64,000 bases of DNA, from contig NZ_NSKE01000010.1 in the NCBI RefSeq assembly GCF_002287075.1, positions 1 to 64,000 on the forward strand. The letters run 5' to 3'. Both the position numbers and the translations under genes were made by a program. Positions 7,283 through 10,400 of this stretch are shown here, piece after piece. A model generated the notes under the pieces. It ran no database searches and was not told the DNA's origin. It saw nothing but the letters and a program-made list of their open reading frames with translations. Positions within the stretch are counted from its first letter, which is position 1. Each line of letters begins with the position of its first letter. The DNA comes from Fodinibius salipaludis. Lineage in GTDB: Bacteria > Bacteroidota > Rhodothermia > Balneolales > Balneolaceae.

Positions 7283-8236
7283 ATGGAGCTACTAAACGAA
7301 ATTGAACAAGCTCATAAGCGTATTCGGGATGATGTTTTTCAAACACCCCTGCTCTACTCCAACTGGTTGAGTGATTATTGTAGTGGGGATGTTTATCTAA
7401 AACTTGAAAGCGAACAGATTACCGGATCATTTAAAGCGCGTGGGAGTTTAAACAAACTCAAATGGATAAAGGAACAAAATATTAAAGGCTTGCCGGTTAC
7501 CGCCTCAACGGGAAATCACGGACTCGGGTTTGCCCGCGCCTGTGATCTTCTGGGAATCAAAGGAAAGGTTTTTCTTCCGCATAATGCCGTTTCATTCAAG
7601 GTAGAATCTATCAGAGCTTTTGATGTGGAAATCGAATTTCACGGGGATGATCCCTATACAACTGAAACATATGCTCGCAAAACAGCCGAGCAAAACGAGT
7701 GGATCTACGTATCACCCTACAACGATCACCAGATTGTAGCGGGACAGGGAACCATCGGGATAGAAATATTAAATAACATTTCCAATCCTGATAACATTTT
7801 TGCCACAGTGGGTGGCGGAGGGCTTATTTCGGGAATTGGAAGCTACGTGAAAGCTCAATCTCCGGCTACGAAAATTATTGGATGCCAACCGGAAAATTCA
7901 CCGGAGATGAGCGTGAGCGTACAGGCCGGAGAGTATCGCGAAGTGGAATCCAAGCCCACCCTTTCGGATGGTTCGGCCGGTGGGTTTGAGCGCAATTCCA
8001 TTACTTTTGAACTGTGCCGAAAGCTTGTGGATGATTTTATTTTGATTTCCGAAGACGAAATTGCCGACAGTATTCGTTCTATGATAAAGCACCACAGCAA
8101 ATTAGTGGAAGGATCAGCGGGAGTGGCCATTGCCAGCTTGCTAAAATATCCGGAGAGATTTGCTAACCAAACGACTGTCATCGTCGTCTGTGGTGCAAAT
8201 ATTTCGGCAGATAAATTACAATCAATCATTTGCTAA
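7283..8236 (+). CDS. PLP-dependent threonine/serine dehydratase or serine racemase-like enzyme
   Basis: This 317-residue protein belongs to the fold-type II PLP enzymes. Lys51 in TGSFKARG is the Schiff-base lysine, STGNHGLGFA binds the cofactor phosphate side, and VGGGGLISGIG is the glycine loop. The length matches single-domain catabolic threonine dehydratase or serine racemase, because the ACT-like regulatory domain of biosynthetic IlvA is missing. It probably converts threonine or serine to the 2-oxo acid plus ammonia; racemase activity cannot be excluded. The diadenylate cyclase gene begins 4 bp after its stop. Confidence 0.88.
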   Translation: MELLNEIEQAHKRIRDDVFQTPLLYSNWLSDYCSGDVYLKLESEQITGSFKARGSLNKLKWIKEQNIKGLPVTASTGNHGLGFARACDLLGIKGKVFLPHNAVSFKVESIRAFDVEIEFHGDDPYTTETYARKTAEQNEWIYVSPYNDHQIVAGQGTIGIEILNNISNPDNIFATVGGGGLISGIGSYVKAQSPATKIIGCQPENSPEMSVSVQAGEYREVESKPTLSDGSAGGFERNSITFELCRKLVDDFILISEDEIADSIRSMIKHHSKLVEGSAGVAIASLLKYPERFANQTTVIVVCGANISADKLQSIIC

Positions 8237-8240
8237 TAAT

Positions 8241-9707
8241 ATGATAGAAACACTTGGATCCAGCCTGCAAGACTTCGCCTACAACGTGCGTATTGTGGAT
8301 ATCCTGGATGTTGCTCTAATCTCAGTAGTTTTCTATCTATTGATAAATTGGCTAATCCGAAGCCTGTCAAAGCGTACGCTAATCGGCTTCTCAACCCTGT
8401 TTGTGATTTATCTTATAGCCCGTCTATCAGGTATGTACCTGACTGAATTACTCATCCAAGCCCTCTTTATTGTTATTTTGATTGGTATGGTTGTCGTCTT
8501 CCAATCGGATATCAGACGGATCGTTGATAGCGTCGGCAACTGGAATTTCTTTATGAAAAATGACCCTCCTTCCGATTCCAGAACCGCGACTAATATAATA
8601 GCAGAGGCCGCTTCCAAGATGGCTTATAATAAGACGGGAGCCCTTATTGTGATCCGTGGCAAAGAAAACTGGGATCGCCATATTGATGGCGGTATTGCTC
8701 TTGATGGGCAACTTTCTACTTCGCTATTATATAGCATTTTTAATCCCACAGCTCCCGGGCACGATGGTGCCGTATTGCTTGAGGGTAATAACATCGTTCG
8801 ATTCGGTACCCATCTGCCGTTATCAAGGAATATGGGCGAAAATTTTGAAGGCGGAACTCGTCATGCCGCCGCTCTTGGTATATCAGAACAATGCGATGCC
8901 CTTGTTGTGGTCGTATCTGAAGAACGAGGAACAATTAGTGTGGCACAATCTGGTTTACTCAAAACTCTGGAATCCCGCAGCGAGTTAAAACGCATTCTCG
9001 ATGATTTTTGGGAAAAGCACTATCAATCGGAGGATACTTCTATTATCAACGGATGGAAACAAAGGAATATACAGACGGCCATTGCTTCTTTAGTAATTGC
9101 CGGCATGCTTTGGTTTGCTTATGCCTACCAGTCCGGGACGGTCTACCGCTCCTTTTCAATACCTATTGAGTATCGGAATTTACAAAATAGTAGTATGATG
9201 GTTCAGGATTCACTGCCAATGCAAGCCCAAGTTACCCTGGCCGGACCAGAACAAGCCTTCCGTGCCTTAGATCCATCTACCCTTGTTATAACATTTGACG
9301 TTAATGAAGAAAATTTAAATTCCGGTAAATTTCCAATCACTGAAAATGTTATTAATATTCCCAATGAATTTCGTTTGTACGATGCAAATCCTCAATCGTT
9401 AGAAATTACTGCTCAGGAAGTAGAACAACTCCAGATACCGGTACACATTGCTATGAGCGATACCCTTTCGGATCAACTCGAACTTCTCTCAATAAGTGCC
9501 AAGCCTGAAACAGTCACCGTAGCCGTTCCCAAGGGTAATACTGTTCCCGACTCTATTGCAACTGAATCTATTGATCTTTCTGATATTGAAGAGTCCATGA
9601 AGATAACAAAAGATCTTCTGCTTCCTTTAGGATTAAGATTATCTGAAGATGAAACACAAGAAATTGTCATCTCTATTGAAGTTCGAGAAAAAGATAATAC
9701 CAATTAA
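8241..9707 (+). CDS. cdaA: Diadenylate cyclase (CdaA-type) fused to a YbbR/CdaR-like domain
   Basis: I chose ATG 8241 (488 residues), just after the dehydratase stop; an upstream TTG at 8160 would overlap that gene by 77 bases and add no recognisable domain. Three membrane spans (about residues 20-90) precede a DAC domain (about 100-255) that makes c-di-AMP from two ATP. The DGA motif is present (Asp175), but the usual RHR motif reads R207-H208-A209 in GTRHAAALG. A further span (about residues 272-292, IASLVIAGMLWFAYAY) leads into an extracytoplasmic region to 488 that looks like YbbR repeats. YbbR is normally the separate regulator CdaR. The protein therefore appears to join enzyme and regulator in one chain. 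Confidence 0.85.
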   Translation: MIETLGSSLQDFAYNVRIVDILDVALISVVFYLLINWLIRSLSKRTLIGFSTLFVIYLIARLSGMYLTELLIQALFIVILIGMVVVFQSDIRRIVDSVGNWNFFMKNDPPSDSRTATNIIAEAASKMAYNKTGALIVIRGKENWDRHIDGGIALDGQLSTSLLYSIFNPTAPGHDGAVLLEGNNIVRFGTHLPLSRNMGENFEGGTRHAAALGISEQCDALVVVVSEERGTISVAQSGLLKTLESRSELKRILDDFWEKHYQSEDTSIINGWKQRNIQTAIASLVIAGMLWFAYAYQSGTVYRSFSIPIEYRNLQNSSMMVQDSLPMQAQVTLAGPEQAFRALDPSTLVITFDVNEENLNSGKFPITENVINIPNEFRLYDANPQSLEITAQEVEQLQIPVHIAMSDTLSDQLELLSISAKPETVTVAVPKGNTVPDSIATESIDLSDIEESMKITKDLLLPLGLRLSEDETQEIVISIEVREKDNTN

Positions 9708-9728: not shown

Positions 9729-10400
9729 ATGCGTTACTTCATTATTTTAATATCCTGTATTTGCATAACTGCAACAACACAAGCTCAGAATGTCATCTCT
9801 ATAAATGCCACTGCCGAGGTATTGGTTCCGGCCGATAAAATTGCTTTTCAAATCAACTTGAATGCGGAAGGTGACACTCCTCAAGAGGCCTATAACCTCC
9901 ATAAAGAGCGTGAAAAAGTGTTGGTACAAGAGCTGAAGAAACACGATATCAAGGAAGAAGATCTAACTTTTGAACCCATTTCTATCAATAAGACCTACAA
10001 CGGATCGTATCGAAATGAGGAGAATAAACGCATTCAAACACGCCAAAACGTTATCGTAACGCTGAAGAACTTTGATATTTATGAGGAGATTCAGATCACG
10101 CTTATTGAAAATAATTTTGATGAATTCAGCGGTAATTTTACATCCAGCGAGGCCGAAGAAGGAGAAAATGAGGCTCTAAAAGAAGCATTAAAAATTGCCC
10201 GCGAAAAAGCTGAAATTATTGCCAACGAAACGGGCGTCACTATCACCGGCATCAAAAATATCAGCCATTCATACAACAGTCGTCCGCCCAGACCAATGAT
10301 GGAGATGACTTCTGCAAAATCTTCTGACAGCCTTTTGGAGTTCGATCAGTCGGTAAGCGTTTCAGCCAATGTATCAGTGACATATAAATTTAAGAAGTAA
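9729..10400 (+). CDS. SIMPL (DUF541) domain exported protein
   Basis: The 223-residue protein has a cleavable signal peptide (residues 1-19, ending TTQAQ). The mature part begins ISINATAEVLVPADKIAFQI, typical of SIMPL/DUF541 domains. Other family features are QEAYNLHKERE, RQNVIVTLKNFD, and the helix EALKIAREKAEIIANETGV. SIMPL proteins are periplasmic or outer-membrane-associated with poorly defined roles in stress. It lies 21 bp after the cyclase gene and may be transcribed with it. Confidence 0.88.
   Translation: MRYFIILISCICITATTQAQNVISINATAEVLVPADKIAFQINLNAEGDTPQEAYNLHKEREKVLVQELKKHDIKEEDLTFEPISINKTYNGSYRNEENKRIQTRQNVIVTLKNFDIYEEIQITLIENNFDEFSGNFTSSEAEEGENEALKEALKIAREKAEIIANETGVTITGIKNISHSYNSRPPRPMMEMTSAKSSDSLLEFDQSVSVSANVSVTYKFKK

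What the first reader, a model, noticed from the sequence alone, without database searches (positions are those of the whole stretch)
8241..9707. Diadenylate cyclase fused to its YbbR/CdaR-like regulator, with an altered RHR motif
In most bacteria CdaA and its extracytoplasmic regulator CdaR (YbbR repeats) are separate proteins. Here both appear in one 488-residue chain joined through an extra membrane span. The DGA motif is intact (Asp175), but the RHR motif reads R207-H208-A209, so one arginine normally needed for nucleotide binding is missing. Either the enzyme tolerates this change or it is weak or inactive. The fusion would give a direct link from envelope state to c-di-AMP.
Basis: partly seen in the sequence, partly recalled or inferred. 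Interest (0 to 1): 0.6.

Follow-up and report, generated by a model that had tools for sequence, protein, structure and literature searches.

The report
Second-messenger enzyme fused to its regulator
A salt-loving bacterium carries, next to its normal c-di-AMP-making enzyme, a second version joined in one chain to the outward-facing regulator that is usually a separate protein; 28 readable relatives of this fused protein all share the same changed active-site letter, so it is an old and conserved variant, not a broken copy.

Summary
Window 8241-9707 encodes 488 aa: three N-terminal membrane helices, a diadenylate cyclase (DAC) domain with intact H174-D175-G176-A177, R207-H208-A209 in place of RHR, a fourth membrane helix (267-295) and two YbbR domains (about 300-390 and 391-483). 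The change is not a one-off. In 28 of 28 fused proteins with a readable motif, across Bacteroidota, position 209 is Ala or Thr; in 38 of 38 unfused CdaA it is Arg. The fused proteins form one clade (support 100/100). In nine genomes of one family (f24) the fused protein is the only DAC found, with no canonical CdaA and no PgpH. In seven of these nine a DHH-type phosphoesterase gene directly abuts it, and 0 of the other 91 genomes of the order has that gene. This makes an active cyclic-dinucleotide synthase with a built-in periplasmic YbbR regulator more likely than a dead enzyme, though activity is untested. CdaA-CdaR fusion itself has been reported in streptococci (PMC10243994). I found no description of the fused RH[A/T] clade.

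The parts
8241..9707 (+). Fused diadenylate-cyclase/YbbR protein, 488 aa
   Evidence: ORF and translation; TIGR00159 CdaA 190.6 bits vs cut-off 188.8; full-length homologues
8292..8498 (+). Three N-terminal transmembrane helices (residues 18-86), CdaA_N-like
   Evidence: AF2 helices 18-39, 43-63, 66-86; PF19293 sub-threshold here, above threshold in relatives
8604..8954 (+). DAC catalytic domain (residues 122-238)
   Evidence: PF02457 E 2.6e-36; Foldseek/VIA matches to CdaA/DacA, Z about 25
8760..8771 (+). H174-D175-G176-A177, intact (preceded by Gly where canonical CdaA has Leu)
   Evidence: invariant in 24 fused and 38 canonical rows, except G173 vs L173
8859..8867 (+). R207-H208-A209, altered RHR motif
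   Evidence: position 209: A 16, T 8 of 24 fused; R 38 of 38 canonical
9039..9125 (+). Fourth transmembrane helix (residues 267-295) linking DAC to the periplasmic part
   Evidence: AF2 helix 267-295; W291 invariant in the clade
9138..9410 (+). First YbbR domain (about residues 300-390), below Pfam threshold by sequence
   Evidence: VIA-align 3lyw Z 9.2 over 301-394; 4qdy Z 10.1 over 292-484; PF07949 matches this region in relative L077
9411..9689 (+). Second YbbR domain (residues 391-483)
   Evidence: PF07949 399-464; 2kxy Z 9.2
7283..8236 (+). PALP-family (threonine/serine dehydratase-like) gene ending 4 nt before the fused gene; same order in G017, G034, G074
   Evidence: PF00291 E 2e-75; neighbourhood clustering
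9729..10400 (+). SIMPL (DUF541) gene 21 nt downstream; also next to the fused gene in G017, G034, G015, G011
   Evidence: PF04402 E 3.2e-33

Best explanation
It is a membrane-bound diadenylate cyclase of a distinct, monophyletic Bacteroidota clade in which the CdaA-type cyclase and a CdaR-type periplasmic YbbR regulator are one chain. Most likely it still joins two ATP into a cyclic dinucleotide, probably c-di-AMP, when two DAC domains meet head to head. The periplasmic YbbR pair acts through the fourth helix on the three CdaA helices to set how often that happens, in response to envelope or osmotic state. In Fodinibius it would be a second, separately controlled c-di-AMP source beside housekeeping CdaA. 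In one related family (f24) it would be the only source, paired with its own DHH phosphodiesterase. SHOWN: architecture, motif states, monophyly, paralogy, sole-DAC status and the DHH-DAC gene pair in relatives. INFERRED: catalysis, product, YbbR control, envelope/osmotic input.
For: H174, D175, G176, A177, G205, R207, H208, S226, E227 and G230 are invariant in fused and canonical proteins. T206 is invariant in the fused clade (28 of 38 canonical), and E228 is kept in 22 of 24 fused rows. The clade is monophyletic, 100/100, on a long branch, so these residues survived long independent evolution. DAC-domain dN/dS is 0.05-0.33. In nine f24 genomes the fused protein is the only DAC found. In seven of the nine a DHH-type gene of one subfamily abuts it, and none of the other 91 genomes of the order has that gene (gaps about -8 to +8 nt; DHH domain). 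Five of the ten f24-type loci also carry trehalose synthesis genes, and five an MscS-like gene, matching the known osmotic role of c-di-AMP. CdaA-CdaR contact through transmembrane helices is published (cited in PMC10243994), which a covalent link would make permanent.
Against: The third Arg of the motif is absent throughout, and replacing all of RHR abolishes activity in DisA, CdaS and CdaM; no single-residue mutant of the third Arg was found. f24 lacks PgpH (0 of 31 genomes). Stand-alone DHH-DHHA1 proteins also occur in organisms that make no c-di-AMP (PMC10243994), and this DHH protein resembles Mn-pyrophosphatases in NCBIfam and PDB searches. Osmotic genes are not next to the gene in Fodinibius or in f51.
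Confidence: 0.6

Rival explanations
1. It binds ATP or c-di-AMP but does not cyclise: a membrane nucleotide sensor that passes cytoplasmic nucleotide status outward through the YbbR domains, or that pairs with canonical CdaA and dampens it.
For: Ribose- and phosphate-contact residues are kept while one motif Arg is lost throughout the clade. Most fused genomes also have a canonical CdaA. f24 has neither CdaA nor PgpH.
Against: In f24 there is no canonical CdaA to dampen. The DHH gene is tied to the fused DAC. D175 is strictly kept in the clade, although this residue is often lost in enzymes that have become inactive (own knowledge).
Confidence: 0.22
2. It makes a product other than 3',5'-c-di-AMP, for example a mixed or linear dinucleotide, because the pocket is remodelled (A/T209, G173, G140, F188).
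For: Several clade-specific changes in the DAC domain occur together. f24 has no PgpH, the usual c-di-AMP hydrolase of its sister families, but does have a dedicated DHH gene.
Against: No specificity residue is known to be involved; the adenine contact equivalent to Leu188 (L192) is kept (PMC10167629).
Confidence: 0.12
3. It is a decaying paralogue with no function.
For: One copy (G012) has an in-frame TAG; distribution is patchy (11 of 128 genomes of the order).
Against: Monophyletic clade with 37 invariant columns across 15 diverse members, purifying selection, maintenance as the sole DAC in nine genomes, and spread of the intact gene by horizontal transfer.
Confidence: 0.05
4. The fusion is an assembly or frameshift artefact.
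For: None found.
Against: Full-length fused homologues occur in 25 or more independently assembled genomes.
Confidence: 0.01

Closest known systems
CdaA/DacA (membrane diadenylate cyclase, TIGR00159)
   Same: Three N-terminal helices plus DAC domain; DGA motif; DAC fold (Z about 25 to CdaA structures)
   Different: Third Arg of RHR replaced by Ala/Thr; extra fourth helix and YbbR domains in the same chain; separate clade from the organism's own CdaA
CdaR/YbbR (cyclase regulator)
   Same: One membrane helix followed by periplasmic YbbR domains
   Different: Not a separate protein; two YbbR domains rather than the three or four of lactic-acid-bacterial CdaR (PMC10243994), and about one in the f24 members
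Streptococcal CdaA-CdaR fusions (A5LQF8, E1M7C3, V8IIN0; PMC10243994)
   Same: CdaA and CdaR in one chain
   Different: Reported in Firmicutes, where cdaA and cdaR are neighbouring genes; their RHR state was not checked here, and no relation to this clade is shown
DisA, CdaS, CdaM, DacZ
   Same: DAC domain
   Different: Other N-terminal or C-terminal parts; window scores far below their cut-offs or is not listed

Membership tests
CdaA (TIGR00159) | Score above the curated cut-off (188.8 bits) | tested here: met
   190.6 bits for the window protein; three fused relatives fall just below it (170.8-180.8)
CdaA (TIGR00159) | N-terminal three-helix CdaA_N domain | tested here: met
   AF2 helices 18-39, 43-63, 66-86; Pfam CdaA_N 19.5 vs 23.8 bits here, above cut-off in relatives
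CdaA (TIGR00159) | DAC domain with DGA motif | tested here: met
   PF02457 E 2.6e-36; D175-G176-A177
CdaA (TIGR00159) | RHR motif | tested here: not met
   R207-H208-A209; A/T in all 24 fused tree rows, R in all 38 canonical rows
CdaA (TIGR00159) | Stand-alone cyclase of about 270 aa | tested here: not met
   488 aa with fourth helix and YbbR domains; the genome's stand-alone CdaA is L002
CdaA (TIGR00159) | Makes c-di-AMP from ATP | not testable with these tools
   needs an enzyme assay
CdaR/YbbR | YbbR domain(s) | tested here: met
   PF07949 26.0 bits vs 22.3; VIA 4qdy Z 10.1 over 292-484, 3lyw Z 9.2, 2kxy Z 9.2
CdaR/YbbR | Regulates CdaA activity | not testable with these tools
   needs in vivo or in vitro assay; even in S. 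aureus no conclusive YbbR effect was seen (PMC6368335)
Streptococcal CdaA-CdaR fusion | CdaA and CdaR in one chain | tested here: met
   architecture against the statement in PMC10243994; the streptococcal sequences themselves were not compared, so common descent with them is not tested

The most novel reading that the evidence does not exclude
A deep Bacteroidota clade of DAC-YbbR fusion proteins has replaced the third RHR arginine and changed other conserved DAC residues. It works either as an envelope-gated synthase of a cyclic dinucleotide other than c-di-AMP, degraded by its own DHH hydrolase, or as a one-chain nucleotide sensor; in one family it works without any other part of the usual CdaA/PgpH c-di-AMP system.
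Probability: 0.25. Interest if true: 0.85.

Novelty: new variant of a known kind. Interest (0 to 1): 0.6.

Why it matters
RHR is listed as an essential motif of all DACs. A whole clade that lacks its third arginine, and that serves as the only DAC in some genomes, either separates the needed from the dispensable part of the motif or reveals a changed function. How CdaR/YbbR controls CdaA is unsettled, and a natural one-chain version makes that directly testable by cutting, swapping or deleting the YbbR part. The DHH-DAC gene pair in f24 offers a minimal cyclase-plus-hydrolase module to reconstitute.

Tried and rejected
Artefact or pseudogene: rejected (fused homologues in many independent assemblies; purifying selection). 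Fusion of the host's own CdaA and CdaR in this lineage: not supported; the fused clade is separate from the host CdaA clade with full support. Conserved functional neighbour in Balneolales: only the dehydratase and SIMPL genes recur, and only among close relatives; transferred copies share little beyond the gene. Salt bridge between R209 and E119 as the reason for joint loss (E119 is also lost in the fused clade): set aside, because the B. subtilis CdaA alignment (6huw) has no acidic residue at that position although it has RHR. R229 as compensation for A209: R229 is common in the fused clade (21 of 24) but also occurs in 6 of 38 canonical proteins with RHR, so it is not specific. Plasmid-borne copies: none covering the query. 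Viral contigs: no relative. Literature for a DAC-YbbR fusion or RHA motif; only the one-sentence streptococcal fusion report was found. Two papers fetched by guessed DOI were irrelevant.

Full report
WHAT IS THERE. Window 8241-9707 (+) is a 488-aa reading frame starting at ATG, 4 nt after a PALP-family gene and 21 nt before a SIMPL gene. Pfam finds DAC (122-238, E 2.6e-36) and YbbR (399-464, above cut-off); CdaA_N is just below cut-off here but above it in relatives. The AF2 model (mean pLDDT 73.6, pTM 0.36; domain arrangement not reliable) gives helices 18-39, 43-63, 66-86, the DAC fold, a helix 267-295 and two beta domains. VIA-align puts 107-260 on CdaA/DacA at Z about 25, and the C-terminal part on YbbR structures: 4qdy Z 10.1 over 292-484, 3lyw Z 9.2 over 301-394, 2kxy Z 9.2 over 389-488.

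WHAT WAS MISSED. The same genome (near complete, 98.9%) has a canonical 272-aa CdaA with GTRHRA, next to folP, and a separate 335-aa YbbR protein, next to ispH (folP and ispH are named from their sequences by eye, without a family search). It also has PgpH. The fused protein is therefore an extra component, not the cell's only cyclase. Named relatives place the window in or near Fodinibius, Balneolaceae (F. salsisoli, F. roseus).

HOW WIDESPREAD. Fused orthologues occur in 11 of 128 genomes of the order, counting the window's own, one truncated copy (G058) and one with an in-frame TAG (G012). The class adds G157 and G188-G190. A phylum sample adds G331 and G316. The order of G316 adds eight more f24 genomes and G600, and the class of G331 adds G740, G786 and G833: 29 genomes in all. 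Hits outside Bacteroidota were ordinary unfused CdaA.

THE MOTIF. Every fused protein whose motif can be read (28) has RHA or RHT. In the 62-row alignment position 209 is A 16 / T 8 in fused and R 38/38 in canonical rows; one further unfused protein has RHK. Other residues that track the fusion are G173 (or T) for L before HDGA, G140, G156, F188 and F256. H174, D175, G176, A177, G205, R207, H208, S226, E227 and G230 are invariant in both groups, and T206 is invariant in the fused clade. The tree separates fused from canonical with 100/100 support and one change; the root is by midpoint, so which state is older is not shown. Thus the motif change is common to the whole clade and goes with the fusion.

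IS IT FUNCTIONAL? The DAC domain is under purifying selection (dN/dS 0.05-0.33 in usable pairs); the C-terminal part is looser (0.06-0.40) (several pairs are saturated). In Balneolales the gene moves on its own: G063, G075, G115 and G058 copies are 84-89% identical at DNA level over the gene while their flanks share at most a few short stretches, and canonical cdaA dS in the DAC domain between the same genomes is 1.86 or saturated, against 0.23-0.37 for the fused gene. A gene that spreads intact is unlikely to be debris.

THE f24 EVIDENCE. In family f24, none of 31 genomes has canonical CdaA or PgpH, while the sister families mostly have both. Nine f24 genomes have the fused protein as their only PF02457 protein. 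Seven of these nine carry a DHH-domain gene of one subfamily directly upstream, with gaps of about -8 to +8 nt where read closely (G316's gap is about 40 nt); none of the other 91 genomes of the order has it. The genomes are related, so the count is not a set of independent events. Five of the ten f24-type loci (including G600) hold trehalose synthesis genes and five an MscS-like gene. DHH-DHHA1 proteins include c-di-AMP/pApA hydrolases but also others (PMC10243994), and this one also resembles Mn-pyrophosphatases. Taken together a cyclase/hydrolase pair is the simplest reading.

WHAT THE MISSING ARGININE MEANS. Published losses of activity come from replacing all three residues (PMC3328451, PMC4568413, PMC13022847). 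The S. aureus DacA structure names D176, G177 and T207 as ligand contacts (PMC6368335); all have counterparts here. A Gly-to-Ser change two residues before RHR was selected in S. aureus DacA (PMC3754961), so this loop matters. I found no test of the third Arg alone, so whether RH[A/T] is active, weak or altered is open.

PRIOR ART. A 2023 review states that CdaA and CdaR are fused in some streptococcal strains (PMC10243994). Fusion alone is therefore not new. The fused RH[A/T] clade, its sole-DAC status in f24 and its pairing with a DHH gene were not found in the papers searched.

VERDICT. Real, conserved and more interesting as a clade than as a single gene: a new variant of the CdaA kind with a built-in CdaR-like part. 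Active cyclase 0.6, nucleotide sensor 0.22, other product 0.12.

Noticed in passing
L170:3016-4080, L166:3-1091, L167:7439-8500, L168:7599-8702, L169:7238-8302, L173:1751-2797, G316:C28:45625-46638: A DHH-domain phosphoesterase subfamily found in 7 of 98 genomes of the order, always directly next to the fused DAC gene; a likely cyclase/hydrolase gene pair.
   Followed up: yes
L085, L170, L171, L172, L173: Trehalose-6-phosphate synthase/phosphatase and TreT-like genes, with MscS-like channels at several of these loci, cluster around the fused DAC in f24 genomes, suggesting an osmotic-stress island.
   Followed up: partly
L037, L040, L041, L042: Single-gene horizontal transfer: 84-89% DNA identity over essentially just the fused gene in genomes of different genera and families, with otherwise unrelated flanks.
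   Followed up: partly
L039:8224-9732 (G012): The fused gene of one Fodinibius-group genome has an in-frame TAG just before the DAC domain, at a locus different from that of its relatives.
   Followed up: no
family f24 (order of G316): Whole family lacks both canonical CdaA and PgpH, while its sister families mostly have both.
   Followed up: partly
L212 (G650): An unfused CdaA with RHK in place of RHR, another natural variant at the same position.
   Followed up: no
window 9729-10400: SIMPL (DUF541) periplasmic protein gene directly downstream of the fused DAC in five related genomes.
   Followed up: partly
L201-L203, L221-L223: In f51 genomes the fused gene sits between a gene of about 534-549 aa (looks like a PAS sensor by eye, no family search) and a DNA polymerase-like gene, not an osmotic locus.
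   Followed up: no
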